29,190 nt of DNA from a virus: positions 1-29,190 of IMG/VR virus record IMGVR_UViG_3300009132_000553, one strand, 5' to 3'. Position numbers and translations under genes: made by a program. The notes below the pieces were generated by a model. That model worked only from the letters and a program-made list of their open reading frames with translations. It ran no database searches and had not been told where the DNA came from. Shown piece after piece: positions 1,404-20,908 of this stretch (position 1 is its first letter; each line of letters begins with the position of its first letter).

Positions 1404-2137
1404 ACCCATTCATGGAAGAAGAGCTTCGCAAATCGGGTAAGCACCCGGGACGCATTACCAGTTCTAGTGGTAGCGGCAACCAATACTTGCAGCCGTATAA
1501 ACAATACATGGATACTGGGGTAAACAACCCCAACCCGCGAGTATCGGAGCACTACCGCCCAATGTCCGAGGCTGAATTCAAGCAGAACCAGCAGCGCATG
1601 ATAAAGCAGTTCGTGGAAGGCCCCGTGCGCCCGCATGTACAAAATCTAATCGCGAAGGGAAAAGTCCCATTCTCGTCGAATGCTTACGGGCCCGGCCCAC
1701 GAGGGGTAGAGTATAGAACACCCACGCCCGGAGGCAAATTGGGACCAAAGCAATTTCTAGCCACACCTCCCCCTTCCAACTTGAAAGCACCGCCTCCCCC
1801 TCCACTTAAGCCCGGAATGGTTACCGGGATACCTAACGTAAACGTAAAACGGGCTCCTGGGGGGCACCCACCGGCTAAGCCACCCTCCATCCCCCCGGCT
1901 TTGTTGAAGGAGCTCAGGGACAACTTGCCAAATAAGGGTGTTAAAAAACCCTCTGGGGGAAGTCGACTTCCAAGCTCCAGCGGCCTCAAAACGATGCCTG
2001 CGTACAGGGGCTTCGGAGGATGGACGGCCATGTTTATGGAAGGCCCGGAAATGCAAAAGGCAAAGACCGATCCGTACTACGGGATGTCCGACAAAGATAG
2101 AAAGCGCCTAGAATGGGCATTGATTCACGGCACATGA
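1400..2137 (+). CDS. Hypothetical proline-rich protein (245 aa)
   Basis: The start is set by ATGA overlap with the 25-residue peptide gene, and the gene ends in an ATGA overlap with terminase. The first 80 residues are mixed and hydrophilic (Gln, Asn, Ser, Arg). Residues from about 115 to 185 are a disordered proline/lysine region with several polyproline runs. The last 40 residues look folded, with aromatic residues and a charged end (SDKDRKRLEWALIHGT). Its place directly before the terminase large subunit is where a terminase small subunit often lies. I see no helix-turn-helix or other small-terminase feature, and the composition does not fit. Function unknown. Confidence 0.65.
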   Translation: MNPFMEEELRKSGKHPGRITSSSGSGNQYLQPYKQYMDTGVNNPNPRVSEHYRPMSEAEFKQNQQRMIKQFVEGPVRPHVQNLIAKGKVPFSSNAYGPGPRGVEYRTPTPGGKLGPKQFLATPPPSNLKAPPPPPLKPGMVTGIPNVNVKRAPGGHPPAKPPSIPPALLKELRDNLPNKGVKKPSGGSRLPSSSGLKTMPAYRGFGGWTAMFMEGPEMQKAKTDPYYGMSDKDRKRLEWALIHGT

Positions 2138-3911: not shown

Positions 3912-5702
3912 ATGGCAATGCAACAAGTAAACGGAAAATGGTACGATGAGGACATGTCCCCCGAGGACATTATGCAAGCGGAGCGCATCAACGCCAATCG
4001 TCAGGGCTACACGCACGGTGAAAAGACACGCGGCGAGCAATTTAATGAGGACTGGATAGACCCGTGGTCAAAAATCGACGATGACGACAGCTGGCTGGAG
4101 AGGATTGGGAAAACGGCAGCCGACTGGACTATAGCTTCCCCCATGAAGCTCGGCACCGCCATAGGCGACCAGATCGAGGATTGGACGGGGAACAAAGACG
4201 GGAAGGAGAAAGAGTGGCGCGTCAATCCCCTTGATTTCTCGGAGGGCGGCGGCGAAGATTTCTGGAATGCTTTGTTCTCCATCCCGGCATTCAAGGCCGG
4301 CAAGGTCGCGCTAGGAGGCATACCCAATTTAATGAAAGCCTATAAGACTGGCGGAAAACCCGCGCTTGACCGCTACATGAAAGAAGTGGCTGGGGGCTTC
4401 GGGATGAACGCCCCAACAAGCTCAGCAATTACTTCGGGACGGCAAATTAAAAACAAGCTTGGATTGTACCCCGGCGATATCGGTTGGAAGGCGAGGACTA
4501 TGGGCGCCGCCTATCCCGCAAGTATGGTCGGCGTCGGCATGGCGGGCGGGCCCATGGACAATCCCTTCGATGACGGGAAGAAACCGGAGAACGCCACGGT
4601 CGTAGACGCCGGCCAAACACCCCCCGGCCAAATACCCTCCGGCCTCGACCCCAACATCGGCCGCTCGCAGTCCTGGAAGACCGCCAGAGAATTTTTAGAA
4701 GGGGGCATGGCGGATCACCCGAACTTCGATCCTTCCCAGTTCCCCAACGACCCGGCCCACGGTATTGATAAGGTCGCGTTGCGACATGCCGTGCAAGGTG
4801 ACGTAGATGGCTACCAGATTGCCAGATACCACGACAAACTACGGGATTTAGAAAACCGCGGTAGAGTAGTAGATAGCCACCAGGACTTGATCGACGACTG
4901 GAAGGCTTCCAAGGAAAATGAAGACGTGTGGAGCGAGCAAGACAAGATGAAATGGGTCAGGGCCTATAACATGGGCGAACTTGACGACTTCAAGCTCAAA
5001 AGAACCCCGTTCACCGATGCCGGACCCCCTAGTCTAGATAACCCTAGCTCTACGCCCAAACCAGGCCCCGGAATCACTCCTAAGCCTCCGTCAGATGAAT
5101 CAGGCGATGAGAGTCTAGGCTTCGGAGGAAGCGCGTCACCGTGGGCGGAAATCGGACTCACCGGCGGCGCCTTGGCCCTATGGTTGGCGAGCAGGGGCAG
5201 AGCCAGACCCCCCAGAGTTCCGGGACCCCCGGCTCAGTTAGGACTACCTAATAGAATAGGCAATTTCACAATGCCAGGCGGTTCGACACCCATGTCTAAC
5301 GCCCGTCCCTACACCCCACCGAGGCAGTCGGCACCGCAGGGGGAGCTACCCCATTTCGAGAAGATCGGACCCCCGTACCCGGGGCAGCCTACCCTAGGCA
5401 ACAAACCACCTCGCCTGGATAACGCCCGCCCGAACTTTGAAACAGTAGGGGGACCTAGAAATGTGACGCCCGATGTGATCAACGTACCGCCACGACCGGT
5501 ACCCCCCAGACTCGAGAATACTAGAAGTAGTTTTCGCAGAGAACCTCCTCACCTACCTTACGCTCGCCGAGACAACTCCCCAGGCGTTCAGGATTGGATC
5601 CCACCTAATTGGCGGGAATGGACGAAGCCGAAAAGAGGGCGCGCGCCGGATTTAGATGACTTTGGCACAGGCTGGTGGGACGACGCATTGAGACGAGGCT
5701 AA
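3912..5702 (+). CDS. Hypothetical proline-rich, possibly virion-associated protein (596 aa)
   Basis: ATG 3912 follows AAGG at good spacing. The first 100 residues are acidic with Trp-rich charged helices. Residues about 125-220 are Gly/Ala-rich and partly hydrophobic, a feel shared with the start of the giant protein downstream. After a hydrophilic helical middle part, a single likely membrane helix lies near 412-428 (EIGLTGGALALWLASRG) with Arg-rich flank. The remainder is a long proline-rich tail with three diverged copies of a unit like 'NARP' (SNARPYTPP, DNARPNFET, ENTRSSFRR). The last residues (GWWDDALRRG) resemble the first residues of the next protein (MAWWDDTLDLG). No family is recognised. 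By composition and position it may be an internal virion protein partnered with the giant protein. Confidence 0.65.
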   Translation: MAMQQVNGKWYDEDMSPEDIMQAERINANRQGYTHGEKTRGEQFNEDWIDPWSKIDDDDSWLERIGKTAADWTIASPMKLGTAIGDQIEDWTGNKDGKEKEWRVNPLDFSEGGGEDFWNALFSIPAFKAGKVALGGIPNLMKAYKTGGKPALDRYMKEVAGGFGMNAPTSSAITSGRQIKNKLGLYPGDIGWKARTMGAAYPASMVGVGMAGGPMDNPFDDGKKPENATVVDAGQTPPGQIPSGLDPNIGRSQSWKTAREFLEGGMADHPNFDPSQFPNDPAHGIDKVALRHAVQGDVDGYQIARYHDKLRDLENRGRVVDSHQDLIDDWKASKENEDVWSEQDKMKWVRAYNMGELDDFKLKRTPFTDAGPPSLDNPSSTPKPGPGITPKPPSDESGDESLGFGGSASPWAEIGLTGGALALWLASRGRARPPRVPGPPAQLGLPNRIGNFTMPGGSTPMSNARPYTPPRQSAPQGELPHFEKIGPPYPGQPTLGNKPPRLDNARPNFETVGGPRNVTPDVINVPPRPVPPRLENTRSSFRREPPHLPYARRDNSPGVQDWIPPNWREWTKPKRGRAPDLDDFGTGWWDDALRRG

Positions 5703-5732
5703 TCGGAGGTACGCATGGCTTGGTGGGACGAC
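5673..5732 (+). repeat. 12-bp direct repeat encoding Trp-Trp-Asp-Asp at a gene junction
   Basis: TGGTGGGACGAC occurs at 5673-5684, in the last codons of the 596-residue protein, and again at 5721-5732, in codons 3-6 of the giant protein. The copies start 48 bases apart and both are read as Trp-Trp-Asp-Asp followed by Ala/Thr-Leu. A further match continues after the 12-mer. Confidence 0.85.
5704..5710 (+). promoter_or_regulatory. Shine-Dalgarno site of the giant gene
   Basis: CGGAGGT ends four bases before ATG 5715. The core match is strong although the spacing is on the short side. It fixes the start of the 4386-codon gene and lies in the 12-base gap between the two genes. Confidence 0.7.
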
Positions 5733-8700
5733 ACACTTGACCTGGGTGCCAACCGGTATCGCAAGGACGAAGAAGAAGACGGCATAGACAAGTTCTTAGC
5801 GAAACCGTCTCAGCGGCCATACCAGCCGCTTACTCCGCAGCAGCCTGCCCAGCCGCCTGCCCAGCCGCCTGCCCAGCAGCAGTATCCTCAGCCTGCCCAG
5901 CAGCAGTATCCTCAGCAGTACCAATCTCCGCTGGATGAGCTGGATGCTTACGACAGCATGCAGTCCCAACAAGCGGGTATGTCTGCCGACGCCAAGGAAT
6001 TCAACACCTCCGCAGATATATGGGAAAACCGTTACACTAAGTTCAAGGAGGAGAAGCTCGACCCTTTTTATAGTGGGCTGAATTTATTTGGAGAGATAGA
6101 AACGGATGATGATTACATCACGCACATAGACGGGGAATTCGACCGTCTTACCAAGCTCTCAAGCGAGGAGGATGGGTTCTTTTCCTTTGGTCCGTCCGAC
6201 GAGAAGATTTCGGCTAAAGAACGTCTGAAGGCATTCGGGGGCTGGAATGCACCCAACGGCCTCAGGGATCAGTTCCGGAAACTCAAGGAGGAGTCCGAGG
6301 CCCGAAGGTCAAGGGCCGACGAAGCCGACATAAGGAGCTCCAACATGATGGAGGCTCTATTGAACATCCCCCGCACTCAGCGCGAGGCGATGGACAGCCA
6401 GATAAAGGCTCGCAAGAAGAGCACGAGCCAGACCCTGTCAAGCAAGAAGAAAACGGACGATTTGCTAGATTCGTTGCACTGGGAGAAGCCCAAGTACTGG
6501 AAGGGTGCCCTACTGAACCCGGATCGCATAGACCCCCGCACGCAATTGGAATCCACGGGTAAGGAGTGGTGGAACGAGTACAACGCCAACGCATCCAATC
6601 AGAAGCAGAACGAACGTATGGTATCTGCCATGAAAGGCGACTTGGACGGTGTCTTAAATCGTCGTCAGCAGGTCACCAAGGATCGTCGTCTACGCGCGCG
6701 CGGGGCTATGTTCTCTTATGGCAACGGCACGGTCGACGGTCATTATCCGACGGGCTTGAGCAAAAGCGACACTGATTTATTGGACTTGGACAGGATGCGC
6801 AAGGCCGGGATGACTGAATACAAAGGTCAGCCTCTGGAAGCTATGGTATCTCAACTGGGAGGCCCTGAACGTTTGGGGATGGCTAAGATCCTTAGTAGCG
6901 TATACGAGTCCAAAAACAATTGGCAGGATGCCCAGATACAATTTTTAAAGTCCATCGGGAGTTCCCGATCCGATAAGCTCAAGGAATCCATGCAGGCCGC
7001 CGAAGAGCTCATGCACAAGTCGGTCTCCATAGCCGCTCAGCACGGCTTGGACAACGAGTTATTCGAGCAGGCCGAGTCCGTCGGATGGTTGGAGGGCCTA
7101 GGCAATGCAATCACTCGCGGTGGTTTGATGAGCGAGCAGAGTAATTACACCAAGGAGTTTCTCACGAACACTTTGGACTTGGACGACATGCAACGTCTGA
7201 TCGAGATACAGAGTGAGATCGAAGACTTGCCGGGTAGCACCGCCTTGGCGCGGTACCAAAAGATGGACAAGGGTGATAATTTGATTAAGGCGATGGGGAA
7301 GTTGGTTGTCAATGAGCCTCTAGCCGCCGTCGAAATGTTCGTGGAGTCCATGGCCGCCTTACTCCCCACGGCCGTAAAGGTCGGTCTCCCCACGGCTGCG
7401 GGCGGTGCCCTCATAGGTGCCCTGACAAAAGGCAAAGGTGGCGCGGAAATGGGTGGTCGACTTGGGGCAGCCCTCGGAATGGGACTATCATCCTTTTCTC
7501 TGGAGGCCGCCGGGAACGTCATGGAGAGCATGCAGGAGCTCAACATCAACGTCCATGACCCCAAAGTGTTTGCGGCGGCGTGGCACAACGACGTAGTTCG
7601 TAAAAAGATCGTCGACAAGGCGGTCAAGAAGGGTGTGCCCATAGGGTTTATGGATGCGGCTGCCGGCGGAATGGCCGGTCGTGTGTCCGCCAGCCTGATT
7701 CATGCGAACAAAGCCATGTTCAAGGGCGGCAAGTTAATAGACGCTAAAACGTGGGCAAAGTCAGTTGCGGACGTTCCGAGGTTCACCAAATGGCAGCGTC
7801 GCGGGTCAGTTGCGGCCGAGCTCGGGTTTGACGCATTCGGCGGCATGGGCGGGGAATATTTGGGTCAGGCTTGGTCCAAGGAGCCTGGCGAGGCTTGGGA
7901 TTGGGATGCCATAGCAGCGGAAGGCGTGATTGGCATAGGACCCGGCGCAATCGGGGGTGCCATAGATTATTACAACACCAGCAAGGGCCGGGTGGAATTC
8001 GAGAACGCCACCTTCAACTACTCCAATGTGCGCACTGGCCCCGAGGGTGAGAGCGGAACCATAAATCGGGCGGGGTGGATCGAGGATTACAGAACATACA
8101 GTAGTGCCGACGGCATGACGGACGCCCTGCTAAAGGCGGGCAATCTAAATGTTTCGACCGACCCTAACGCCCCGGCGGACAAAGCCATGTGGGTACAGGA
8201 TTGGGTCGCCCGTATGTGGTCAGCCAACCCCGAGAAGATGAGCAATCTCCGGGTGGTCATGAACTCCCAAAGAACCTCTGTCCGCGGTGGCGACAAATTG
8301 GGCGGGGCCTTCGAGCACGACGAGGAAGGCAATCCCGTGCTGTACATAAGCAAGGTAGGTATGGCGGACAACCCCATCGCCCACTTCATGCATGAGTCCG
8401 GGCACTTTGCTCGGGAAATGATCTTCGAGAATCCTCAGGACATGTACGACATGTACGACACCCTGAGCAAGCAAGATCGGCTGGAAGCTTATAGCGCGTA
8501 CCACAACAAAAAGCCCGGTGTATCTTTTCACGATTTAAGCCCTGCCGAACAAAACAAAACCCGAAAGGGCTTCGATAACATGGGCCAGGAAAAGCTCGCC
8601 GAAGAGTGGTTTGCATATCAGTGGGGAGCGCTATTGGCAGGTCAAACCGTTGAAGGTTCCAAGCCGATAGCCGCGCCTCTAAAACAATTTTTAGATGGTC

Positions 8701-11700
8701 ACATTAAACCGTATCTGGAAAAGTGGATAGGCGACCCTGATTTAGGGAACCAGGAAAATTCCATACGACTCCAGCAAAAGGTCTTGGAGTGGATGGGGTA
8801 CGACCCTTACGGCAGGCCCAAGACTAACCGTAAGTCTATGGGCAACTTCGGCACCGAAGTTGATTTCGACGCCCCCAATATGCGATCCCCCGCCGGCGTC
8901 CACGTCATGGATGGGTTGAACGAGCAGGAAGGTCTCAACGCATTGGTCGATAAGCTGCGATCGGTCTACAGATCCAAAGACGGACTTTGGGGGGATGGCC
9001 CAGAAGGTGGGGACATGTCCGTAGAGGGGGTCGTCGATGCCATGGAGGAATACCTAGGCGAAGACATGTCCTCGGTTAGGGCCGCCATCCTGGATGAGCG
9101 CGAAACACAAAACTTAGATGAGGCGGCATCCGGAATAGATCCTGAGGCACCGCCGCCGGCCGAACCGCTCGACCCCGGCAGACCCACGATAAGAACCCCC
9201 TACGATTCGGATGCCGATCCTGAAGACGCCACCGCTGCCGCACCCAGCCCTGCCGAACCAACGACACGAGACAAGGATGCCGCTCGTCGCCGCAAGCTCG
9301 GCGAATATTTCCCACAAACTTTCGTAGATTCCGCCCCCGAGGGAAAGTTCACCGTCACGGAGTCGCTACCCGGATTCCGTTCCGGCGAGCGCGGAGCCAT
9401 TGGAGATCCTTCGGGTGGGGGCAAGGTCACCACCTACGACAGTCGCGAGGAAGCCGAGACGGCAGCCGAAGAGATTCGGACACGTCAACACGCCGACATA
9501 ACCACATCCCACAAGAAGCTTACGGACGCAAAGGAAGTCCTGGAGGACGACGTTAAATTCCAGGCGGCATACGATAAAGCCGCGGAGAAACTTGCCGATG
9601 AGTACGGGGGGGCGGAAAAGGTTCCCGACACCGCAATTGCAGCCGAGATAATCGGCTTGGAGGGCATGCGAGAAGAGTCCTACTGGGGCGACCACCACAT
9701 GGGCCAAAAGCTCGCGGAAGAGGGCCTCGGAAAAACCTTGGATCACCAAGTCCTAGATCAATTGGTACATGAATCCGAAGCGAAGCGCGAAGGAGCTCGA
9801 GACGCCATCCAAGGCGAGATTGACGAGCTGAAGCAGCACATGGAGAAGAACAAGGGGCTGGATCTCACCGGCAAGGATCGCGCAGAAGGACGGAAGCAAA
9901 GAGATGAGTGGACTCGCCGTCTGGATGCCCTCGAGAAATACAAAGATTTGCTGATCCCCGAAGAGTATGGGGTAGACTGGAAAGACACCCCGCATCCGTT
10001 TCTAGAATGGCAATTAGTCGACAAGGATGGGAAGAACATAGGCAAAGAAAGGTTGTATGGCAAAACTGCAGAAACTGGAGAGCGGGGTGGCGCCGTAACC
10101 GGAAAACTCACCTTCGGTGAGATGGCGCAGCAGTCCGGCAAAGTGGGAAGAACGAAAATCGGGGAGATAGCCCTCACCAAAGCCGAGGCCGATAATCTGA
10201 ACACACGCGATGCACAACTTATAAGTCAGGGAAAGATACCTAAATGGAAAGCGGGGGACAAACGAGCCGTTTACCGCGAGATAGGATCGCGGAACAAAGC
10301 AGGTAAATGGGAGGGGAAGGATCAGCACAACCTCCAACAGAAACTACAGGAACTCACGCGCGACCCTTCCGATGGCGGGTATGATCCCAGCAAGCAGGCT
10401 GCTGGCCCCGACGAACCGATCAGCAAAAAGAAAGAAGGCCTGACCCCCAATCAATACAGAAAACTTTTAGATGCCGTCAGAGCGGCGGAACTTTCGCCCA
10501 GTCGGTCCAACATATCCACGAAGCCCCTAGGCAAGATAAAAGTCGGTCCGGACGGTAAGGAAATCCCCGGCGGCGTTCCGGCCGGATTTTCGGCAGACAA
10601 AGGAACCACCCTCTCGGCCCTCGCCTTGGACAAGGTACAGCGACTATCCGACCAGCGAGCTAAAGACGAATTCCATGCAGCTCGCGGCGGCAAGCCCGGC
10701 AAGCCCAAGGCGCCGGTACAGAAGCTTGTCATGCGCTATAAGCCGCACTCCTCGCCGGAAGCGAGGGATGGCTACGGCACGGCACGCGACGGGATGACCG
10801 GGGAGAACACGATGGATTGGATCGAGGCGGGGCAACGTACAGCCACCACGCGACTGAAACAAGCAAAGGACTCGAAGTACAAAGGTATCGAGGGCCTAAA
10901 GGTTGGGGACGTCGTAGAAATGGTGGACGGAGACCGTAAACTTCTTGTGGAAGTCACGAAAGCGCCCTACCCCCCAGAGACCCTATCAGCCGAAGAATGG
11001 AGCAAGCTGGAGGGCTGGGCACCGGAAGAGCACGACAGACATGCCAAAGGATCCTACCTACAATTTCAATATAAGCTCTACGACCCCGCTCCCGGAGCCG
11101 CCGCTCCCAAACGCCCGGGTGAAAAGGTCAACCGCCGTCCACGCACATCCGAAAATACCAAGCTGTCAAATCCCACCACTTACGCTTTATCCCAATACGG
11201 GGGCATGCCATACGAAAAGAGCGGTGGCTTAGTCCAAAGCCGCAAGGAATATTTGCAAGACATGTTGGTCCAACGACGCTTGGATTACGTACAGGGTAAA
11301 ATAGACGAGCACCTAGAGACCGGGGGTCGCACTACGGAGGAATCCCTGAAGACCTTGGAGAATTTGAAAAAGAGATTGGACAGCATTCGCGCTAGACATT
11401 CCGATGGCGAAGGGTTTGGGGACTACGCTTCAGGAGTCGAAGAGGGGCCGGAATTCCCCACCAGAACTCCACAGAAGACCGGCGCGGCCGAATACGACAG
11501 CCAACACAACCTAATGTATGCGGGTGACCCTATAATCCGTTGGGATGAAGCCGTATCGGAATTTGCAGAAGGTAAGCCGAGAGAAGACGCCATAAAAGCG
11601 CTACTGGACATAATCGAGACTGACATCACGAACGACGCCAACAATCGGCGCATGCAAGTCGGCGGCCAGTTCAACGAGGACGAAGCCACTGAGGGAACTC

Positions 11701-14700
11701 TTTCCGATGAAGAGATCGTCGAACAAGAAGAAGCAGCCCGGGGCGACGAGCCCAGACCCAAGGACGCTTCCTCCCTGTTCTCGAGTTTTGAGCACACATC
11801 AAAGGGCACCTTCGCCGACGGTGAAAAGACGATCACGGTAAAGTCCCTCCAAGTACCTCCCGATTTCACACCCGATCAACACGCTGAGCTTACGAAGGAG
11901 CTTGCCGCGGAGGAGGAGGCCCTTAAAGACGCCCAAAAGGCCCGCACGGAGGCCATGGAAGCTGGACGGAGCGATGAGGCGAGAGATGCGCTAACAGCTG
12001 CCGGCGAACATTCGGTTAAGGTCAGCGAACTTAAAAAACAGTTAAACAGGGACGTATACGATTTCAAGCAGGCTGGGGTCGACCCCGGGCATCTCGTAAA
12101 ATCCCGCGTCGGAGTTCACACAGGATTCACGCGAGGAAGCGTGGACGAAGGGGTGAACATCATGGAACTAATCCTAGCTTTACCGGGCGTAAAGAAGGAT
12201 CCTGCGTTAGAGGCAAAAATACGCAATTACGACTTCGGCAAGGTGGAATCCAGCAAGGTCGCCACGGAAATCTACGACGAGAACGGGGAGCTCAAGCCTG
12301 ACTTAATCCCGAATAATAACGAAACCGTCACTGTGGATGTGTCCAAACAGACCGTAGAATTCACGCAGCAAAAAGGGGTGATGGATTCCGAAAGTAGCGG
12401 TCAGACCAGTCTTCTTCAGGATGTACAGGAAGAGGGCACCGTAGAAGTCCCCACGGAGGATGGCGGCACAACGACTGAAACCGTAGGCCTTAGGGAAGAC
12501 AAAACATTTCGCTGGTACAACGGTAGCTGGCGCATAGGGAAGAGTTTCACCAAAGTTACAAACAAAGACCATTTAGCAAAGATAAAGGCCGCGTGGGAGC
12601 AAGAACTCGACAAAAGGTTCACCGGTGCTAGCCGCTCCGCGAATATGGTGACGGCCGCCGATCTGGTCGACTTCTTCATAAACATGAAGGGTAGCGTCCA
12701 TAGATTTGGCGACATCCCCTCGTCGCAGGTCAAGAATAAGACTCTGACCCAAATGCCGGGAGCCCCCGGTGCAGGTCTGTTGCTACCCGTCTGGGATGAA
12801 TTCATCGATGCGATATACGATAAGCTGAACATCACCAGGAAGAGGGTCGCAAGTGGAGGCCGAGGGCCAAAGGCCAAAAGCCAGTTGGCAAGCGCCGTAC
12901 AGGTTATAGTAGACGGCGAACTCATTGGTAACGTGCTTAAAGGAAAGGAACGTCTGGTTTCCTCCATGCATGCGGACTTGGCTCCCATTTTCCAAGCCGT
13001 GATGGACGCCGACCGGGCGAACTTGTATGAGCGGGCAACCTATGAAAAAACAGACGTAGATACCGATGGAACGGTGGTTAAGTATGACCCCCAAGAAAAG
13101 CCGACCTCCGATGCCGACGCTTTAAACGACAAGAGTGGTGTTGAGGCGGAAGGGACGGACGCCTCACCCGCCGATCCCACGAGCCCTGCCGACGAAGACT
13201 TTGCGCGCGGTCCCAATCAGCAGATCCCTAAGGGTTACATGGACAGCAAGTTTCGTGCGGCTGTCGTCAAGGGAGCCAAGGACAAGGCGAAGGCGGATGG
13301 TCTCACGCGAAAAGCAACGACGGAATACGTTTCAAAACTCGAGGGGCAGGCCATAGAAGCCTTCAACAGATTAAAGGGTTCTAAAGTAGGCATACGTCTG
13401 CTAGCGCACGGCGCAAGCCTGACGGCCGGGGGTGGCAACACGTTTAGCCACCGCGATCTTTTACATATATTCCCTCAAAACGAAGGAATTAACGGCGGGC
13501 CGTCCACATCCATAGAGGGGGACAACCCAAACATTTGGCAACTTTTTGACCTTGATACTGTCGCCCCAATCATTTTGGAGCCTTTAGACAGGGAGCATAA
13601 ACCCACGGGGACGTTGGAAAAGACCAAGGCGAAAATACAAGATAGAATAGCCACCCAACGAAAGGTCATGAACACTTACGGGGAGGGTTCGCATGGCGCC
13701 GCACTGGCAGTTAAAGAGATAAACGCGCTCATGGCGAAGGAGAGGGCAATAGACCAGCAGCTAGCACAACAAGACTTGGTCTTAAAGGGTCAGGAAAGAC
13801 GAGCGCAGGGCGCCCCAGGAGCGCCTCCCCTAGCTTCAGAAAAAGCGTACAAAACCCAGATGGATGCCGTGAAGGCATGGCTTGACAAAATAAAGGAACG
13901 CCCGCTTCACCGAGCTTTCTTTGAAATGGTTTACAACCCCGGTCAGGTACTCAGCTCGGGAGTGTCGGACAAAAACAAACCGACCTACCGCGAGATGCTG
14001 ATGAACTTCTTGTTCGGTAAGTTCCGAAAGGCCAAGGTATCCGCACCAGAGCCCGACGCGAAACCCGTCCCATCCCGCAGAAATTTCCTAAAGAGCCTCG
14101 GATTGGGAGCTACCGTCGCGCACACTGGTTTACCCACAGTGGCTAAAGCAGCCGCAGCCAAGGGCACAACGGCCGCCGCCGTAATGACGAAGGCTGTTAG
14201 ATTCCATAAGTTAGCGGAAGCTATACAGGCTCGAAGAGATATTGCTCGCGACGTTAAAGAGATCAATAAAGAAGTTCGTGAATGGGAGCGGGAGATTATC
14301 GATTACAGCACTGGCGGATTCGAGAGCGAAGGCGGCTCGCTGCCGGATTACCCAGATTTCGACGACGACCCTGAACACGCGGATTACGACGCACACCACG
14401 AAATGTATGCGGAAGCACACGAAGAAATGGTCAAGGAGACGGCTTTAGCGGATCAAGGGTTGTCCCAGATATACTCGGAACCGGGGGCTGGCTGGAGATA
14501 TGGCAACATCACTGTTTTCGACCCTTCGAAGGGCCCTAAAGATCCGCGAGTTATGCTCCGCATATTGAAGATTCTCGCTGCACAAGTGGCTACCGAATCC
14601 AGCGCGGTAGCGACCGCAAGGTCTAGAGACACCCAGCGCGAGATGGAGACGCTTATCAATTTAGATGCGGCCAAAGAAAATAAACAAACCCGGTCGTGGG

Positions 14701-17700
14701 AGCACAGCGGTAAAGACTACAACTGGGTGGCAGACCTAAGTAAGGATGAGCTAAAACAGTTGGAGGAGGGAGAATATTGGCACGACATGGGCGGCGGCAT
14801 CAGCAGCACTGAAATACCCCACAAGCGCTATAAGAGATATGAGGAGATGTCCGAAGACGAGTTTATGATCCACGTTTTTGATGCAGAACTGCACGACCCT
14901 CACCAAAAACATGGGCCAGGAGACCGCCTCGATGAGTACAAGGGTCTCATAGGCAACTTGGTCTCGGATTACGTTTTCCAGAAGCTGTCCAATAAGCACC
15001 TGCCGGAGGCAAGGCAAGGGCCCGGGGTACCAAAAGATGATTTCAAGGCCCGATACGAGGCTCTGCACGACGAGTACGAAAATTACGTGATAACGCCCAA
15101 AGACGTAAAAGAAGCGTACGAGGAATACCGGCAGGAGATGACTAAGTATCGAGGAGATGAGGTTGGCCAAAAGGCAGGGGTGAAGCGGGCGATAAAAGAG
15201 CTGAAGAAGGCCATGAAATACGCTAAAACCATACCCGAGCCCCCAGGCGCTGAGACCGACCCCTTGGCTGATCTTACGCTATCCATAAATCAAGCGGTAG
15301 CGACCGTGCAGGGAGCATTGGCGGGCCTAGCGGCCATGGAGAAAAACGTGGGCAAGGCTCTGAATATCGGCGAGATCATAGCCGACAGGGTAGACCGGGT
15401 AACCAAGGAGATGGACAAGACGCCGGCACTGGAAAACAAGGAGGTCAAGGGCGAAGAGATAAACATCATGCCCGAGAAGGAAAAGGTTCCGGTGAAAAAA
15501 AAGGGGTCCAAGGGCGATAGCCCCGGGCCGTTAAGTTCGGGCATGGTACTCACCAGCGGGGTGCCTGACAACGTGGGCAACCTGTCGATGATCGGTAGGC
15601 TGCTGGCGAACAATCAGGACGATCCGGAAGGAGACAACTTCGTCTCTCGGTTTCTAAAGCGGAATATGCTCATGACCGATTACGTGGATCAAGCGAGGCC
15701 CTTGAAAAATTTACACGACAAACTGCTGTCCCAGTTGGGGATTCCGGAAGACCACCCGCTTTTCGATGCCCTGAAGACGCACCGCAAATGGCATGCATAT
15801 TACGGCAAGGGTTTTGACGTGGTGGATCGAGCCGGGAGAGAATACATAGACCCCATCAAGGAAGCCCTGCGTGACCACGGCATAACGCTGGAACAGTTCG
15901 GCGAGTATTTGTTGGCCCGCGCGGCTCCCTCGAGGAACCAGCATCTTCGCGTTCGCGAGGAAGACAATCAAAAGGAGGAATTGGCTAAACTGTACGTCAA
16001 GGACAGGCCCGAGCAAAGCGACAGGTATAAAGCAATGGTGGAGGAGCACAAGAAGCGGGAGATACCCACGTCGGGAATAGAGGATCACGTAGCGCTGGAA
16101 ATAGTGCACAACATGGAGGCCGACGCGAACTTTATGAGGTTCCTCAAGGATGCCCGCCAACCTCTACAAAAATTTTACGCTATGAATCGAGACGCCCTCA
16201 AACAAAAGACTCGCGGGGGTCTCATTCAAGGCGAGGGGGGTCTGAACGAGGAGGCCCGCATGGTTGCGGCGATGTCGCATTTCGACTGGAATATCCAGAA
16301 CCGTTCCAAGATCAAGTTGGGAGACAAATACTCATACGCGCCCATGCAAGGATTCGTCGATGAAATGGATAGGCTCAAGGATCGTGAAGAGGCGTATGAG
16401 CGTCTGGGCAAGTCGGGAACCACTGCCGGCAAGGGTTTCGACCAGCCCAAGCAGAAGTTTCTGTCCAAAGGCGCCTTCGGTCGCGGAACGTTTGAGAAGG
16501 ACGGGGTGAAAGGCTCGTGGGCTCCCGACCCCGAGGTGACGTTCGCAACGGCTGTAGAGCAATATTTTAACGATGCCATACGCTCTCAGAAAAATACGGT
16601 CAGTCAATCTTTCGGAAACGTGTTTAATATCATGAGGGCCGCAGCCGATTCCAAATATATGAAGACGCTGGAAGCATCCAACCCCGAATGGGCCAAGGTC
16701 CTGAAAGGGTTGCCGAAGCAAGCTCTCGAGGACATTAAAAAAGACTTCCATGAAACTTTCGAGATGGAGTTCACTCCGGAGGAAATAATCAGCGAGTATA
16801 AATTGAGCGACGACGAGGTAACGGACGAACACGGCAACCCAATATCTCGATTAAAGACACGTTCAAAGAAGCTGAGCACCGAATTTAAAGACGACCCCCT
16901 AGTCTTCGTATATCGCGAAGCGGGTGCCCCCACGTACATAAAACTCAAGGCTACCAACAAGGGCGCCGAGATGGCATCCACGATGAAAAACTTGAGGTAC
17001 CAGGCCCTCACTGACCCGTTCCTTAAGAAGGCCAATTGGGGTACGCGCATGTTGGCTAAACTCTACACGTCGGTCAACCCGATGTTCATCATCCCCAATT
17101 TCTTCAGGGATTACGGCACCGCGTTCATACACCTGACTGAGGATGAGAAACGGGGCTTGACTAAAGATGCTTTGAGTATGCCCAACATAGCTAAATTCGG
17201 GAAGGCCATATTCCTCGCGGAAAGGATGCGGAAAGAAGGCAAGAATCCGCTAGGGAAGCTCCGGCCGGACTTGGCGAACAAGAAAGCCATGAACAAGATG
17301 GCGGCAGACTTGCTCTCGGAGGGGGATTACATGAAGATGTACGAGTTCGCACAGAGTGCGGGGGCCAAGGTCGGGTACTTCAGGCATGAGTCCATGCTTC
17401 AGCAGATCGAGAGAATCAACAAAGAGTTAAGCAAGCCCATCAAGGGCCTCAATCGCGGCATGGAGCTCGGCAAACAGGTGTTTGGGGTTGTCGACAACAT
17501 GAACACAGCCGTGGAGAATTCCATACGAATGTCCGCTTTTTGGGCAGCCGTCAAGCGTGGGGATTCCGTGGAGAAAGCCACCCACATCGCCCGTAACGTC
17601 ACCGTGGATTTCAATCAGAAGGGCAATTACACACAAACTTTAGGTTCGCTTTACGTATTCTTCGGGGCGGGGATGAATTCCATAGATCGCATGACGCGAT

Positions 17701-18875
17701 CCATACTCAAGAGGTCACCCGAAGACCGGGCTGTTCTGTTCGGATCAATGATCGGCGCATCCATAGTGGTCAACCTGTTCAATCGGATGATGGACCCGGA
17801 GGATGAGGAAGAAGAGCAAGCGGATTACGATACCATAAACCACTATAAGAGAGACACCAATTTAATTGTTCCCATGCCCAGTTGGTTTTATGGCAACACG
17901 GAAAAGTACGCCATGAAAGACACCGGGTATTTTTCACTACCTCTTCCACTGGGGTACAACGCACTTTGGGCCGTCGGCCAGGTTGCGGGCGACCTGATCG
18001 CTCGCCAGACGTTCGGGGCCAACGCCGGCACGAGCGTGGGGAATGCCATAGGCCGGTTGACCGAGTCCTTCGCTAATGCCGTGAACCCTCTGAACACGGA
18101 CAACCTGCTCACCATGATTACCCCTTCCGTCGGCAAGCCTCTGACCCAGCTCGCCATGAACGAGGATTTCATGGGGCGCCCTATAAAGTACGAGCAATCC
18201 CGATGGGAAATACCCAAGCCCGCCCACGAGCTCGACCCGCGCAAGGTACACGACCATTGGACATGGATCTCAAAACAGATCAACAGCTTTTTCGGGGGTT
18301 CCGACACCACCAAAGGCACGTTACTCGGCGATCCCAACATGTCCTCGGAGGAAGCCTCCGTCAGATTCGACATATCCGGAGGCCAATTCATGCACCTCGT
18401 CCACAATTATCTCGGAGGTTGGGGCAAGATGGCCGATGCCGGCATTAGTGTGCTGACCCACCCGCTGGATCTCATGGACAAAGGCGAAAAAATGAAATTC
18501 GATTGGGGCGCCATCCCCATAGCCAGCCGATTTGCCAGAAGCTCCACTTACGGGGTGAACATTCGCAGAGACTTCAGATCCTTGCACCACTGGAGTAAGA
18601 CAATAGAGAGCGAAATAGAGAAGGCAGGCAATGTCGGGCCTAAGTCGGAAGCCGCGGTCCGGCATACATATAGGAAAGCTATGCCGCTGGTGAAGTTTGT
18701 AAAAAACGTTGAAAAAAACAGCAATGCCATTAGCCGTAAGATGAAGAAAGTGGAAAACAACCCTCATTTATCTGAGATGGAGAGGACACAACAGGTAGAC
18801 ACATTGACGGAACAGGAGTTAAAGTCACAGATCCAGGCCATACGAAAAGCGCGTGCACTCGGTGTTGATCTATGA
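5715..18875 (+). CDS. Giant polyvalent virion protein with zincin, ASCH-like and LPD38-like regions (4386 aa)
   Basis: A single uninterrupted frame encodes 4386 residues, likely packed in the capsid and injected with the genome. This is by analogy with large polyvalent proteins of podovirus-like phages; no localisation is visible directly. In order: a Gln/Pro repeat (about 43-70); helical charged region; Gly/Ala-rich hydrophobic segments (about 534-601 and 735-755); zincin motif HESGH (893-897) with Glu963/964 downstream; disordered Pro/Ala/Glu linkers (about 1130-1190); ASCH-like domain (about 1670-1792); charged helical and unknown regions; twin-arginine-like SRRNFLK (2787-2793); an acidic region near 2855-2900; a basic linker near 3255; helical regions; and an LPD38-like region (about 3775-4197) with hydrophobic helices near 4006 and 4081. 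The C-terminal 80 residues are a charged helix. I see no T7/N4-type RNA polymerase motifs. It lies between terminase and portal and overlaps the portal start. Confidence 0.85.
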   Translation: MAWWDDTLDLGANRYRKDEEEDGIDKFLAKPSQRPYQPLTPQQPAQPPAQPPAQQQYPQPAQQQYPQQYQSPLDELDAYDSMQSQQAGMSADAKEFNTSADIWENRYTKFKEEKLDPFYSGLNLFGEIETDDDYITHIDGEFDRLTKLSSEEDGFFSFGPSDEKISAKERLKAFGGWNAPNGLRDQFRKLKEESEARRSRADEADIRSSNMMEALLNIPRTQREAMDSQIKARKKSTSQTLSSKKKTDDLLDSLHWEKPKYWKGALLNPDRIDPRTQLESTGKEWWNEYNANASNQKQNERMVSAMKGDLDGVLNRRQQVTKDRRLRARGAMFSYGNGTVDGHYPTGLSKSDTDLLDLDRMRKAGMTEYKGQPLEAMVSQLGGPERLGMAKILSSVYESKNNWQDAQIQFLKSIGSSRSDKLKESMQAAEELMHKSVSIAAQHGLDNELFEQAESVGWLEGLGNAITRGGLMSEQSNYTKEFLTNTLDLDDMQRLIEIQSEIEDLPGSTALARYQKMDKGDNLIKAMGKLVVNEPLAAVEMFVESMAALLPTAVKVGLPTAAGGALIGALTKGKGGAEMGGRLGAALGMGLSSFSLEAAGNVMESMQELNINVHDPKVFAAAWHNDVVRKKIVDKAVKKGVPIGFMDAAAGGMAGRVSASLIHANKAMFKGGKLIDAKTWAKSVADVPRFTKWQRRGSVAAELGFDAFGGMGGEYLGQAWSKEPGEAWDWDAIAAEGVIGIGPGAIGGAIDYYNTSKGRVEFENATFNYSNVRTGPEGESGTINRAGWIEDYRTYSSADGMTDALLKAGNLNVSTDPNAPADKAMWVQDWVARMWSANPEKMSNLRVVMNSQRTSVRGGDKLGGAFEHDEEGNPVLYISKVGMADNPIAHFMHESGHFAREMIFENPQDMYDMYDTLSKQDRLEAYSAYHNKKPGVSFHDLSPAEQNKTRKGFDNMGQEKLAEEWFAYQWGALLAGQTVEGSKPIAAPLKQFLDGHIKPYLEKWIGDPDLGNQENSIRLQQKVLEWMGYDPYGRPKTNRKSMGNFGTEVDFDAPNMRSPAGVHVMDGLNEQEGLNALVDKLRSVYRSKDGLWGDGPEGGDMSVEGVVDAMEEYLGEDMSSVRAAILDERETQNLDEAASGIDPEAPPPAEPLDPGRPTIRTPYDSDADPEDATAAAPSPAEPTTRDKDAARRRKLGEYFPQTFVDSAPEGKFTVTESLPGFRSGERGAIGDPSGGGKVTTYDSREEAETAAEEIRTRQHADITTSHKKLTDAKEVLEDDVKFQAAYDKAAEKLADEYGGAEKVPDTAIAAEIIGLEGMREESYWGDHHMGQKLAEEGLGKTLDHQVLDQLVHESEAKREGARDAIQGEIDELKQHMEKNKGLDLTGKDRAEGRKQRDEWTRRLDALEKYKDLLIPEEYGVDWKDTPHPFLEWQLVDKDGKNIGKERLYGKTAETGERGGAVTGKLTFGEMAQQSGKVGRTKIGEIALTKAEADNLNTRDAQLISQGKIPKWKAGDKRAVYREIGSRNKAGKWEGKDQHNLQQKLQELTRDPSDGGYDPSKQAAGPDEPISKKKEGLTPNQYRKLLDAVRAAELSPSRSNISTKPLGKIKVGPDGKEIPGGVPAGFSADKGTTLSALALDKVQRLSDQRAKDEFHAARGGKPGKPKAPVQKLVMRYKPHSSPEARDGYGTARDGMTGENTMDWIEAGQRTATTRLKQAKDSKYKGIEGLKVGDVVEMVDGDRKLLVEVTKAPYPPETLSAEEWSKLEGWAPEEHDRHAKGSYLQFQYKLYDPAPGAAAPKRPGEKVNRRPRTSENTKLSNPTTYALSQYGGMPYEKSGGLVQSRKEYLQDMLVQRRLDYVQGKIDEHLETGGRTTEESLKTLENLKKRLDSIRARHSDGEGFGDYASGVEEGPEFPTRTPQKTGAAEYDSQHNLMYAGDPIIRWDEAVSEFAEGKPREDAIKALLDIIETDITNDANNRRMQVGGQFNEDEATEGTLSDEEIVEQEEAARGDEPRPKDASSLFSSFEHTSKGTFADGEKTITVKSLQVPPDFTPDQHAELTKELAAEEEALKDAQKARTEAMEAGRSDEARDALTAAGEHSVKVSELKKQLNRDVYDFKQAGVDPGHLVKSRVGVHTGFTRGSVDEGVNIMELILALPGVKKDPALEAKIRNYDFGKVESSKVATEIYDENGELKPDLIPNNNETVTVDVSKQTVEFTQQKGVMDSESSGQTSLLQDVQEEGTVEVPTEDGGTTTETVGLREDKTFRWYNGSWRIGKSFTKVTNKDHLAKIKAAWEQELDKRFTGASRSANMVTAADLVDFFINMKGSVHRFGDIPSSQVKNKTLTQMPGAPGAGLLLPVWDEFIDAIYDKLNITRKRVASGGRGPKAKSQLASAVQVIVDGELIGNVLKGKERLVSSMHADLAPIFQAVMDADRANLYERATYEKTDVDTDGTVVKYDPQEKPTSDADALNDKSGVEAEGTDASPADPTSPADEDFARGPNQQIPKGYMDSKFRAAVVKGAKDKAKADGLTRKATTEYVSKLEGQAIEAFNRLKGSKVGIRLLAHGASLTAGGGNTFSHRDLLHIFPQNEGINGGPSTSIEGDNPNIWQLFDLDTVAPIILEPLDREHKPTGTLEKTKAKIQDRIATQRKVMNTYGEGSHGAALAVKEINALMAKERAIDQQLAQQDLVLKGQERRAQGAPGAPPLASEKAYKTQMDAVKAWLDKIKERPLHRAFFEMVYNPGQVLSSGVSDKNKPTYREMLMNFLFGKFRKAKVSAPEPDAKPVPSRRNFLKSLGLGATVAHTGLPTVAKAAAAKGTTAAAVMTKAVRFHKLAEAIQARRDIARDVKEINKEVREWEREIIDYSTGGFESEGGSLPDYPDFDDDPEHADYDAHHEMYAEAHEEMVKETALADQGLSQIYSEPGAGWRYGNITVFDPSKGPKDPRVMLRILKILAAQVATESSAVATARSRDTQREMETLINLDAAKENKQTRSWEHSGKDYNWVADLSKDELKQLEEGEYWHDMGGGISSTEIPHKRYKRYEEMSEDEFMIHVFDAELHDPHQKHGPGDRLDEYKGLIGNLVSDYVFQKLSNKHLPEARQGPGVPKDDFKARYEALHDEYENYVITPKDVKEAYEEYRQEMTKYRGDEVGQKAGVKRAIKELKKAMKYAKTIPEPPGAETDPLADLTLSINQAVATVQGALAGLAAMEKNVGKALNIGEIIADRVDRVTKEMDKTPALENKEVKGEEINIMPEKEKVPVKKKGSKGDSPGPLSSGMVLTSGVPDNVGNLSMIGRLLANNQDDPEGDNFVSRFLKRNMLMTDYVDQARPLKNLHDKLLSQLGIPEDHPLFDALKTHRKWHAYYGKGFDVVDRAGREYIDPIKEALRDHGITLEQFGEYLLARAAPSRNQHLRVREEDNQKEELAKLYVKDRPEQSDRYKAMVEEHKKREIPTSGIEDHVALEIVHNMEADANFMRFLKDARQPLQKFYAMNRDALKQKTRGGLIQGEGGLNEEARMVAAMSHFDWNIQNRSKIKLGDKYSYAPMQGFVDEMDRLKDREEAYERLGKSGTTAGKGFDQPKQKFLSKGAFGRGTFEKDGVKGSWAPDPEVTFATAVEQYFNDAIRSQKNTVSQSFGNVFNIMRAAADSKYMKTLEASNPEWAKVLKGLPKQALEDIKKDFHETFEMEFTPEEIISEYKLSDDEVTDEHGNPISRLKTRSKKLSTEFKDDPLVFVYREAGAPTYIKLKATNKGAEMASTMKNLRYQALTDPFLKKANWGTRMLAKLYTSVNPMFIIPNFFRDYGTAFIHLTEDEKRGLTKDALSMPNIAKFGKAIFLAERMRKEGKNPLGKLRPDLANKKAMNKMAADLLSEGDYMKMYEFAQSAGAKVGYFRHESMLQQIERINKELSKPIKGLNRGMELGKQVFGVVDNMNTAVENSIRMSAFWAAVKRGDSVEKATHIARNVTVDFNQKGNYTQTLGSLYVFFGAGMNSIDRMTRSILKRSPEDRAVLFGSMIGASIVVNLFNRMMDPEDEEEEQADYDTINHYKRDTNLIVPMPSWFYGNTEKYAMKDTGYFSLPLPLGYNALWAVGQVAGDLIARQTFGANAGTSVGNAIGRLTESFANAVNPLNTDNLLTMITPSVGKPLTQLAMNEDFMGRPIKYEQSRWEIPKPAHELDPRKVHDHWTWISKQINSFFGGSDTTKGTLLGDPNMSSEEASVRFDISGGQFMHLVHNYLGGWGKMADAGISVLTHPLDLMDKGEKMKFDWGAIPIASRFARSSTYGVNIRRDFRSLHHWSKTIESEIEKAGNVGPKSEAAVRHTYRKAMPLVKFVKNVEKNSNAISRKMKKVENNPHLSEMERTQQVDTLTEQELKSQIQAIRKARALGVDL
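5844..5915 (+). repeat. 12-bp tandem repeats encoding Pro/Ala/Gln/Tyr
   Basis: Six in-frame 12-base units encode the Q/P-rich N-terminal linker. Three begin as CCTGCCCAGCCG or CCTGCCCAGCAG (Pro-Ala-Gln-Pro/Gln). They are followed by CAGTATCCTCAG (Gln-Tyr-Pro-Gln), another CCTGCCCAGCAG and another CAGTATCCTCAG. The array is likely length-variable between relatives. Confidence 0.85.
7314..7517 (+). other. Gly/Ala-rich hydrophobic segments in giant protein (res. ~534-601)
   Basis: The translated stretch has two or three hydrophobic helices rich in Ala and Gly (for example VEMFVESMAALLPTAVKVGL and GRLGAALGMGLSSFSLEAAG). Such segments in ejected virion proteins are candidates for membrane insertion during DNA entry. 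That role is inferred from composition only. Confidence 0.5.
8391..8606 (+). other. Zincin-like metallopeptidase motif in giant protein
   Basis: Residues 893-897 read HESGH, fitting the HExxH zinc-binding and catalytic motif, with a hydrophobic lead-in (NPIAHFMHESGH). Glu963/Glu964 in QEKLAEEWFAY is a plausible third ligand. Its spacing (about 66 residues) suits gluzincin-like families. This supports an active metallopeptidase domain, which could process virion proteins or act on host targets after ejection. I cannot name the peptidase family. Confidence 0.6.
10722..11087 (+). other. ASCH-like (PUA-fold) domain in giant protein
   Basis: Residues about 1670-1792 show ASCH features: an opening strand KLVMRYKP, the signature GQRTATTR (1706-1713, matching the family's GxKTxTxR), then GLKVGDVVEM and LLVEVTKA. 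These are followed by LSAEEWSKLEGW and a closing aromatic strand YLQFQYKLYD, which resemble ASCH-like domains seen in polyvalent proteins. ASCH/PUA-like domains bind RNA or modified nucleotides, so a role in RNA or nucleotide handling in the infected cell is inferred. Confidence 0.6.
14073..14159 (+). other. Internal twin-arginine (Tat) signal-like sequence in giant protein
   Basis: Residues 2787-2793 read SRRNFLK, an exact match to the S/T-RR-x-F-L-K consensus of Tat signals. A mildly hydrophobic Gly/Ala stretch (SLGLGATVAHTGLPTVAKA) follows, with an A-x-A site at 2810-2812. Acidic/Pro/Lys linker precedes it (KAKVSAPEPDAKPVP). True Tat signals are N-terminal, so this one would work only if the protein were cut just upstream or if it is a relic of a fused exported protein. 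Confidence 0.5.
17037..18302 (+). other. LPD38-like region in giant protein
   Basis: Residues about 3775-4197 match what I know of large polyvalent protein-associated domain 38. The region opens with KLYTSVNPMFIIPNFFRD. It has helical segments with ATHIARNVTVDFNQKG, then YVFFGAGMNSIDRMTRSI, a hydrophobic helix (FGSMIGASIVVNLF, near 4006), and YFSLPLPLGYNALWAVGQVA. This region is typical of the C-terminal part of very large phage virion proteins and gives the best clue to the gene's class. Confidence 0.7.
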
Positions 18876-20908
18876 AGCAATCTAATTTACAACTAAACTA
18901 CAAACAGGAAGAGGATCTCCTCGAATACCTCACCAAAAGGGTGGAGCAATTGCAGGAGGACAATCTTGAACGCATACAACAAGACCGACTTTCCTGGATG
19001 CGGTACCACAATACCCGGGAAGACCGGCTGTCCCACGACTCCATATTCGACAAATCCAATGTGAGCGTGCCTTTGACGTCTTTAGTCGTGGATCACTTCA
19101 TGGCTCGAGCCGAGGATGAAATCACGGGCACCTCGCCGTACTTCAAGTTTGACGCACAAGGGGCTGCCGACATAGATGCCGCCGAAGCCTACGACAAATA
19201 TTTCAATTGGAAAATAGAGGATCAAGCCGAGACCCGAGAACGTCTGGAAGAGTCTTACCTTCACATCTTCGTCCAGAGAGCCGTCATCATGAAGGCCGTC
19301 TACGAGGAGGATATATCCACGTGGTATGACCGGGAGCGTAACGCTTTATTCAATACGGAGACTCAGGATTTTGAGCAGATCCCCGGCGAAGGACCCATTC
19401 TAGAGGGCGAGGCACAGTTCCTCCCCGAGCCAAACCCGATGACCGGGGAAACCGAGTTGCGGTTGGCGACGGACCCGACCTTTCAGATGATTCCCGGCGT
19501 CCACCAATTCCAACCGTTTCCAGAAGGTGTCCCCACCCAACAGGTAAAGTACAAGGGTCCAAGGTCAGAGGTCGTGGACAGCGATCGCTTTCTATGCCCA
19601 TCCAACGTGGAGTCGGTGGAGAAGGCCGACATAGTCGTCGAGTTGTACGATAAAGACATACGGTGGGTCAAGGAGATGTTCCTAGACCGAGAGTGGTGCA
19701 GTTACGGGGATTACCTGAACATGGTAAAAAAGGACGCCAACCCCCGCTCGGAAATAGAAAAGAACGAAAACCAAGAGGATCTCACCTTCGACTCCGAGAA
19801 GAATCCCAGCATCCCCATAGTGGAGTGTTGGGTAAAGCGGGATATATTGGGAACGGGAAAACCACAGGATTTCTGTGTGTTTTACGACTCCGAGACAAAA
19901 AAGATTTTATATTACGAATACGTCGCCAAACTAACTCCCGACAACCGCTTGCCTTACAGCATCGTATCTATCGGCAAGGAGAGAAACAAGTGGTGCGGAT
20001 ACAGTCTACCGGAACGTATCACCATCTTTCAGGAATACGTAGACAAGCAGTTCAACGCCCAAAGCTACCGCAACGAGCTCTCGGCCAACCCGATAATCGG
20101 AGTAAACCCGCAGGCCGTCGAGGACGAGCCGGAGGACGTCGAGCTGCATGCCGGGAAGATATTCGAACTCAAGGATCAGTACACGATCGACGATTTCATA
20201 AACTTCGCACAGGTTCCCCAAGTCGACATCAAGACCCAGGAATTGATCGACTTCATATTTGGAATAGTTCAGCTTTGGTTAGGGGTTTCCAACATGGCTC
20301 AGGGAGATTATCAAGCACTGGCCCCCGCCAACACGGCTACGGGCGTAGAGGCCACCTTGAGCGAGGCATCCAAAATAGGGCGTCGTTGGATGCGACGCAT
20401 CGTCAAAGGTTTTGAGGGCCACATCACGAAACTCGTGCAGATTGCCATGGCCACGATGGACGAGGCTGAGGTTTACGAGTACATGGAGGGGGACACTGCG
20501 GCATTTGCCATGATGACTCCGGAAATGGTCGAAAACCTATCGGTAAACGTGAGGGTCATTCTGTCACAGGACCAGGGTCAAAGGGCGATAGAGAAAGCGA
20601 ACCTCGCTCTACAAACACAAGAAAGATTTTTTCAATCTCCTCCCGAAATGCGTCCGTTCATGCGACCCATGCTCAAACGCATCTTGGATGCCATGGGCTA
20701 CGAGAACACGGACGAGCTCTTGCCGCCTGAGGCACCACCCGATCCCAAATCGGAAGCGGAAATCGCCAAGATGCTGGGCGACAACTCAGCACAGGGCGAA
20801 TCCCCCGAACCGGGCGACCGGATTTCCGGGGCCGTGGAAGGCATGGGCAATTCCAACCCGCAGGGAGAAAACCAGTATCAACAACAAGTCCAAACTCAAC
20901 AAGGATAA
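18872..20908 (+). CDS. Portal protein (678 aa)
   Basis: The portal forms the dodecameric ring at one capsid vertex, through which DNA enters and leaves and on which terminase and the neck dock. The start forms ATGA with the stop of the giant gene. The N-terminal part is helical and charged. Residues about 85-150 resemble the portal wing entry (VVDHFMARAEDEITG, then FKFDAQGA). A conserved-looking crown/stem region near 460-510 has GVSNMAQGDYQALAPANTAT, followed by an Arg-rich helix KIGRRWMRRIVKGFEGH. The C-terminus is low-complexity and Gln-rich. Length and this signature suit portals of podovirus-like phages with N4-gp56-type capsids. Overlap with the 13-kb gene suggests translational coupling. 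Confidence 0.85.
   Translation: MKQSNLQLNYKQEEDLLEYLTKRVEQLQEDNLERIQQDRLSWMRYHNTREDRLSHDSIFDKSNVSVPLTSLVVDHFMARAEDEITGTSPYFKFDAQGAADIDAAEAYDKYFNWKIEDQAETRERLEESYLHIFVQRAVIMKAVYEEDISTWYDRERNALFNTETQDFEQIPGEGPILEGEAQFLPEPNPMTGETELRLATDPTFQMIPGVHQFQPFPEGVPTQQVKYKGPRSEVVDSDRFLCPSNVESVEKADIVVELYDKDIRWVKEMFLDREWCSYGDYLNMVKKDANPRSEIEKNENQEDLTFDSEKNPSIPIVECWVKRDILGTGKPQDFCVFYDSETKKILYYEYVAKLTPDNRLPYSIVSIGKERNKWCGYSLPERITIFQEYVDKQFNAQSYRNELSANPIIGVNPQAVEDEPEDVELHAGKIFELKDQYTIDDFINFAQVPQVDIKTQELIDFIFGIVQLWLGVSNMAQGDYQALAPANTATGVEATLSEASKIGRRWMRRIVKGFEGHITKLVQIAMATMDEAEVYEYMEGDTAAFAMMTPEMVENLSVNVRVILSQDQGQRAIEKANLALQTQERFFQSPPEMRPFMRPMLKRILDAMGYENTDELLPPEAPPDPKSEAEIAKMLGDNSAQGESPEPGDRISGAVEGMGNSNPQGENQYQQQVQTQQG

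What the first reader, a model, noticed from the sequence alone, without database searches (positions are those of the whole stretch)
5715..18875. A 13-kb single gene for a multi-domain virion protein
One 4386-residue frame fills about 45% of the window. It joins a membrane-like segment, a zincin motif, an ASCH-like domain, an internal Tat-like sequence and an LPD38-like end. Large polyvalent proteins are known in phages, but this combination and size are unusual. The long regions I could not assign (about 1200-1650, 1800-2750 and 2900-3750) may hide further effector domains that enter the host with the genome.
Basis: partly seen in the sequence, partly recalled or inferred. Interest (0 to 1): 0.8.

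Follow-up and report, generated by a model that had tools for sequence, protein, structure and literature searches.

The report
Giant injected phage protein with cargo slots
An uncultivated, probably marine phage carries one 4,386-residue protein that is very likely packed in the virus particle and pushed into the bacterium with the DNA; proteins of this kind are known, but this family swaps effector modules in and out of its middle, and several members carry an unexpected export signal buried inside.

Summary
In detail: one 4386-codon frame (window 5715-18875), with a ribosome-binding site, coding-type composition and about 60 homologous loci in other uncultivated phages. Gene order terminase, cysteine-free ORF, giant, portal is conserved wherever visible. 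It is a phage-type large polyvalent protein. LPD38 scores E=2.4e-24, the 1,120-residue C-terminal block folds like polyvalent proteins (Foldseek E=3.8e-27), and that block is homologous to proteins of Bcep22-like phages, where the 4,515-residue JC1 gp69 was found in virions by others. Cysteine is almost absent (3 in 136,910 residues), as in N4's injected polymerase.

The family has fixed ends plus two fixed middle modules, and slots that differ even between close relatives. Cargo includes ADP-ribosyltransferase and metallopeptidase-like modules. In one clade the cargo is bracketed by a repeated LNSDA(G) motif.

The Tat-like sequence is real: RRxF[LM]K[ST][LM] occurs in 5 giants against 0.002 expected, patchily on the tree.

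Virion location, cleavage and export are inferred. Novelty: new variant of a known kind.

The parts
5715..18875 (+). giant polyvalent protein gene, 4386 aa, no cysteine
5705..5709 (+). GGAGG Shine-Dalgarno-like site of the giant gene
5715..8084 (+). conserved N-terminal block (aa 1-790), 43-46% identical in relatives
7320..7514 (+). conserved Gly/Ala-rich weakly hydrophobic stretch (aa 536-600), possible membrane-active segment
   Evidence: hydropathy only
8181..8801 (+). zincin-like module (aa 823-1029): HESGH 893-897, candidate third ligand E964 in AEEWF
   Evidence: motif, not fold-confirmed
9741..10754 (+). conserved middle module M1 (aa 1343-1680), function unknown
   Evidence: ASCH label not supported
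12648..13175 (+). conserved middle module M2 (aa 2312-2487), in nearly all members that span it, function unknown
13950..13961 (+). LSSG (aa 2746), possible left bracket of the cargo cassette
   Evidence: weak
13968..15530 (+). slot-3 cargo cassette (aa 2752-3272), Tat-type, function unknown
14073..14150 (+). internal Tat-like signal SRRNFLKSLGLGATVAHTGLPTVAKA (aa 2787-2812)
15531..15542 (+). LSSG (aa 3273), right bracket at the start of the C-terminal block
15513..18872 (+). conserved C-terminal block (aa 3267-4386), fold shared with polyvalent proteins
17820..18521 (+). LPD38 domain (aa 4036-4269)
   Evidence: E=2.4e-24, 86.9 bits, cut-off 27
3912..5702 (+). cysteine-free partner ORF (596 aa), same place in relatives; candidate second ejection protein
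2113..3882 (+). terminase large subunit
18872..20908 (+). portal (SU10_portal, E=5.7e-40)
24278..25807 (+). major capsid protein (phrog_334)

Best explanation
It is a phage-type large polyvalent protein, packed in the capsid and ejected into the host with or ahead of the DNA. Shown here: fixed ends and two fixed middle modules, variable cargo slots, near-total lack of cysteine, conserved place between terminase and portal, C-terminal homology to polyvalent proteins. Inferred: the helical C-terminal LPD38 block and the N-terminal block anchor it in the virion core with the 596-residue cysteine-free neighbour; the chain threads unfolded through the portal and tail; lack of cysteine avoids disulphides during packing and transit through an oxidising periplasm; the zincin-like module cuts the chain after ejection, as proposed for other polyvalent proteins; the slot cargo then acts in the host in the first minutes. 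In this member slot 3 holds a module headed by a Tat-like signal.
For: LPD38 E=2.4e-24; PHROG matches 14770/616/10691 to other giant phage proteins. The AlphaFold model of the C-block matches polyvalent proteins over about 1,100 columns (E=3.8e-27, TM 0.59). C-block homology to Burkholderia DC1 gp67 and BcepIL02; JC1 gp69 (4515 aa, LPD38 at 4195-4401) was found in CsCl-purified virions with 51 unique peptides (PMC9144972). Conserved terminase / Cys-free ORF / giant / portal order and giant next to portal in Bacteroides phage BKO1-TP3. 3 Cys in 136,910 residues against 0.4-1.1% in other ORFs of the same contigs; upstream partner 0 Cys in 16 of 16 genomes. Same trait in N4 gp50/51/52, linked in print to tail and periplasm passage (PMC3715699, PMC3915230). 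Cargo: ART-PolyVal, SprT-like, cpYpsA, DUF4326. HE[SAG][GSA]H in 28 members that span the region, with an invariant downstream [ED]WF.
Against: No proteomics for this phage; virion location rests on synteny, homology and composition. The zincin fold was not confirmed: no Pfam or PDB profile match, an insignificant hhalign match to N4's region, and no PDB fold match. Cleavage is untested. Not every giant of this sort lacks cysteine (BKO1-TP3 8, crAss cr272_1 39, MetMV 3). M1, M2 and the slot-1 and slot-2 regions have no assigned function.
Confidence: 0.82

Rival explanations
1. It is purely structural or an ejection-channel component (like T7 gp16); the middle is spacer without enzymatic cargo.
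For: Mostly helical C-block model; weakly hydrophobic Gly-rich stretch in the N-block; position next to the portal.
Against: Slots carry ADP-ribosyltransferase and metallopeptidase-like modules in close relatives, with near-identical flanks; slot content changes while the core is kept.
Confidence: 0.1
2. It is an N4-like virion RNA polymerase, or a DarB-like antirestriction protein, whose catalytic domain has diverged beyond recognition.
For: Size, no cysteine and HExxH as in N4 gp50; C-block homology to DarB-like proteins.
Against: No RNA polymerase, methylase, helicase or transglycosylase family at E<=1 in the whole protein; none in the middles of 20 members. Fold search covered only aa 800-1840 and 3267-4386.
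Confidence: 0.05
3. The Tat-like stretch is a relic or chance string with no export role, for instance the leftover head of a captured host gene. (This concerns one element only and can be true together with the best explanation.)
For: Patchy on the tree; G010 keeps the following hydrophobic part but has lost RR and F; position is internal, and Tat signals normally work at the N-terminus (own knowledge).
Against: 5 instances against 0.002 expected; none of this motif in 139,731 residues of other ORFs; W and G006 keep the motif (SRR.FLK.LGLGAT) at about 40% overall identity; two pass NCBI's TAT_signal_seq cut-off.
Confidence: 0.5

Closest known systems
Bcep22-like gp75 proteins (JC1 gp69, DC1 gp67, BcepIL02 gp70; 'DarB-like')
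   Same: single 13-14 kb gene, about 4.5 kaa, LPD38 near the C-terminus, C-block homologous, no cysteine in DC1 gp67, found in virions (JC1)
   Different: they carry a lytic transglycosylase, methylase/helicase and LPD3; none of these is in the window protein; gene lies after the tail genes, not between terminase and portal
N4 virion RNA polymerase (gp50)
   Same: giant, cysteine-free, next to cysteine-free ejection partners, HExxH motif, ejected
   Different: no polymerase domain found; no detectable sequence homology
Bacteroides phage BKO1-TP3 gp55
   Same: 5553 aa, C-block homologous (E=7e-19), directly upstream of portal
   Different: 8 cysteines; core modules ZN, M1 and M2 not detected
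Vibrio phage K249 / 252E42.2 and Ruegeria phage 45A6 giants
   Same: C-block homologous (E 3e-31 to 5e-41), 2502-3912 aa, no cysteine
   Different: core modules ZN, M1 and M2 not detected
Polymorphic toxins with a boundary motif such as VENN (analogy only, own knowledge)
   Same: conserved carrier, short boundary motif, exchangeable effector modules
   Different: here the module is internal and bracketed on both sides, in a virion-type protein

Membership tests
Phage-type large polyvalent protein (Iyer et al. 2017, PMC5512222) | several disparate domains in one chain | tested here: met
   fixed modules plus slots holding ART-PolyVal, SprT-like, cpYpsA in relatives; in the window member itself only LPD38 is a curated match
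Phage-type large polyvalent protein (Iyer et al. 2017, PMC5512222) | LPD domain; LPD38 is phage-type only | tested here: met
   fold match; paper passage
Phage-type large polyvalent protein (Iyer et al. 2017, PMC5512222) | encoded among virion or packaging genes | tested here: met
Phage-type large polyvalent protein (Iyer et al. 2017, PMC5512222) | zincin-like metallopeptidase (common, not universal) | tested here: inconclusive
   invariant HExxH and downstream E; no profile or fold match
Phage-type large polyvalent protein (Iyer et al. 2017, PMC5512222) | protein enters the host with the DNA | not testable with these tools
   needs virion and infection proteomics
N4-like virion RNA polymerase | single-subunit RNA polymerase domain | tested here: not met
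   no polymerase family at E<=1 in the whole protein nor at E<=0.01 in 20 middles
N4-like virion RNA polymerase | no cysteine (reported trait) | tested here: met
   N4 control
DarB-like antirestriction protein | methylase/helicase region | tested here: not met
   no such family at E<=1
ASCH domain | match to the ASCH profile or fold | tested here: not met
   no Pfam/NCBIfam ASCH match at E<=10; model below 50 pLDDT over most of the region
Tat signal peptide | twin-arginine motif with weakly hydrophobic stretch | tested here: met
   (window 14.5 bits against cut-off 16.7; G006 19.5, L130 17.7)
Tat signal peptide | at the N-terminus of the chain | tested here: not met
   aa 2787 of 4386; no Shine-Dalgarno before the internal ATGs of G002 and L130

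The most novel reading that the evidence does not exclude
The giant is a virion-delivered polyprotein with a modular cargo bay. Cassettes are exchanged between short repeated bracket motifs (LNSDA(G); LSSG in the window), which may also be release sites. One cassette type carries a masked Tat signal that becomes N-terminal when the chain is cut in the new host, sending a phage module from the cytoplasm into or across the inner membrane, for example to close the entry route or block a second phage.
Probability: 0.15. Interest if true: 0.87.

Novelty: new variant of a known kind. Interest (0 to 1): 0.58.

Why it matters
It adds a large uncultivated phage family to the polyvalent proteins and separates carrier from cargo by comparison. 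The bracket motif gives a way to find injected effectors by position rather than by similarity. A recurrent Tat-type signal inside injected proteins would, if functional, show phages using the host export machinery with proteins delivered from the particle, and it is testable with a small reporter assay.

Tried and rejected
ASCH: no profile or PDB sequence match, weak model. Zincin link to N4 or MetMV by hhalign: not significant. PDB fold search of both models: nothing at E<=0.001. Internal translation start before the Tat-like stretch: ATG in G002 and L130, no Shine-Dalgarno, none close in W, G006 or L113. Fusion or assembly artefact: excluded by homologues in many contigs. LNSDA(G) as a purely DNA-level repeat: spellings differ between clades but are mostly shared within a genome, so recombination arm and peptide function are both open. 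Host by prophage search: one fragment in a Flavobacteriales MAG bin, none in 294 other genomes of its class; the Shine-Dalgarno site is not what I would expect of Bacteroidota (own knowledge), so host unknown. Portal search: no cultured-phage match at 1e-5. Literature search for Tat signals in ejected phage proteins: nothing relevant in the titles and abstracts returned.

Full report
Observation. The frame 5715-18875 is real: ATG start with GGAGG five bases upstream, 4386 codons, no stop, stop codon overlapping the portal start. The record is an unannotated IMG/VR fragment of 29,190 bases. Its neighbours are terminase, portal, capsid and a tail protein. No portal relative was found among 50,697 cultured-phage records at 1e-5.

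Relatives. Scans of IMG/VR with pieces and alignments gave about 60 homologous loci, the nearest 91% identical over its first part but cut at a contig end. Complete giants run from 3313 to 5845 aa. The order terminase, cysteine-free ORF, giant, portal recurs wherever the contig is long enough. The largest contigs are about 69 kb.

Architecture. Iterated profiles and alignments give a fixed core: N-block (aa 1 to about 790), a zincin-like module (823-1029), M1 (1343-1680), M2 (2312-2487) and a C-block (3267-4386) with LPD38 (4036-4269). Between them lie variable slots at about 1030-1340, 1680-2310 and 2490-3270. The C-block model (mean pLDDT 64) has no PDB match but matches predicted structures of polyvalent proteins over its whole length.

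Cysteine. There are 3 cysteines in 136,910 residues of the family, two of them in the last three residues of one fragment (L122), against 0.4-1.1% in other ORFs. The upstream neighbour has none in 16 of 16 genomes. N4 gp50, gp51 and gp52, Burkholderia DC1 gp67, Ruegeria 45A6 and two Vibrio giants have none either. The trait is published for N4-like polymerases and read there as a need of passage through tail and periplasm, and noted for Zobellviridae giants. It is therefore a known trait met here, not a new one. Giants of Bacteroides, crAss-like and methanogen phages do contain cysteine.

Cargo. Middles of relatives hold ART-PolyVal, SprT-like, cpYpsA and DUF4326. In one clade slot 3 is bracketed by LNSDA(G). 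G009, G010 and G022 have near-identical flanks and unrelated cassettes (an ART; three stacked pieces with a SprT-like one; another). G002 and G021 share the junction codon for codon, then differ (Tat module against ART). A DNA pattern for RTLNSDAG hits 9 stretches in 2.9 million viral contigs, 8 of them in this family; the ninth is an unrelated small protein. In the window the C-block begins with LSSG, and a second LSSG stands 40 residues before the Tat-like stretch. This resemblance is weak on its own.

Tat-like stretch. RRxF[LM]K[ST][LM] is found in W (2788), G006, G002, L113 and L130. Composition predicts 0.002 in the family, and 139,731 residues of other ORFs contain no match to it. The motif was chosen after seeing examples, so the odds overstate the case, but G006 and L130 pass the curated TAT_signal_seq cut-off independently. 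A scan of all IMG/VR for the motif returned 26 stretches in total. The carriers are scattered on the C-block tree with non-carrier sisters (G002 placed by its near identity to G004). So the element behaves as cargo. Whether it works as an export signal is unknown, since it is internal and needs cleavage.

LPD38: right. HExxH: present and conserved (28 members), fold unproven. Tat-like: right as a motif. ASCH: not supported; the module is shared with crAss-like phage cr272_1 gp23 (36%, E=1e-6). Membrane segment: weak hydropathy only.

Verdict. This is a new family of phage-type large polyvalent proteins, the nearest virion-proven cousins being the Bcep22-like giants. New here, as far as the tools and papers searched show, are the carrier-and-cargo layout with a bracket motif and the recurrent internal Tat-type signal. 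Injection, cleavage and export are inferences.

Noticed in passing
L106, L073, L077, L032, L051 (slot 3 of G009, G010, G022, G002, G021): Cassettes of unrelated sequence, several ADP-ribosyltransferase or metallopeptidase-like, sit between repeated LNSDA(G) motifs with near-identical flanks; G010 stacks three pieces.
   Followed up: partly
L148, L149, L150, L009, L144 against L151, L145, L008: Giant proteins of proteobacterial phages have no cysteine; those of Bacteroides, crAss-like and methanogen phages do. May follow host envelope redox; few samples.
   Followed up: partly
L151 (Bacteroides phage BKO1-TP3): A cultured phage with a 5553-aa C-block homologue directly upstream of its portal, the same order as the window.
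   Followed up: partly
L145 (crAss-like cr272_1 gp23, C-terminal part) and window 10746-11132: A module of about 130 residues shared between two otherwise unrelated giant phage proteins.
   Followed up: partly
L073 (G010 aa 2222-2246): RQGSTKSTLMGFAAANIKTGAKVAG: 84% identical to the Tat module of G002 but without RR and F, perhaps a decayed copy.
   Followed up: no
window 2-715, 1400-2137 and G001 39360-44625: Further cysteine-free ORFs upstream of the terminase, candidates for more ejection proteins.
   Followed up: no
L141, L142, L143: More distant C-block relatives (23-26% identical), 2534-2550 aa, also without cysteine.
   Followed up: no
L111: C-block fragment (40%) in a contig binned into a Flavobacteriales MAG; weak host hint only.
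   Followed up: partly
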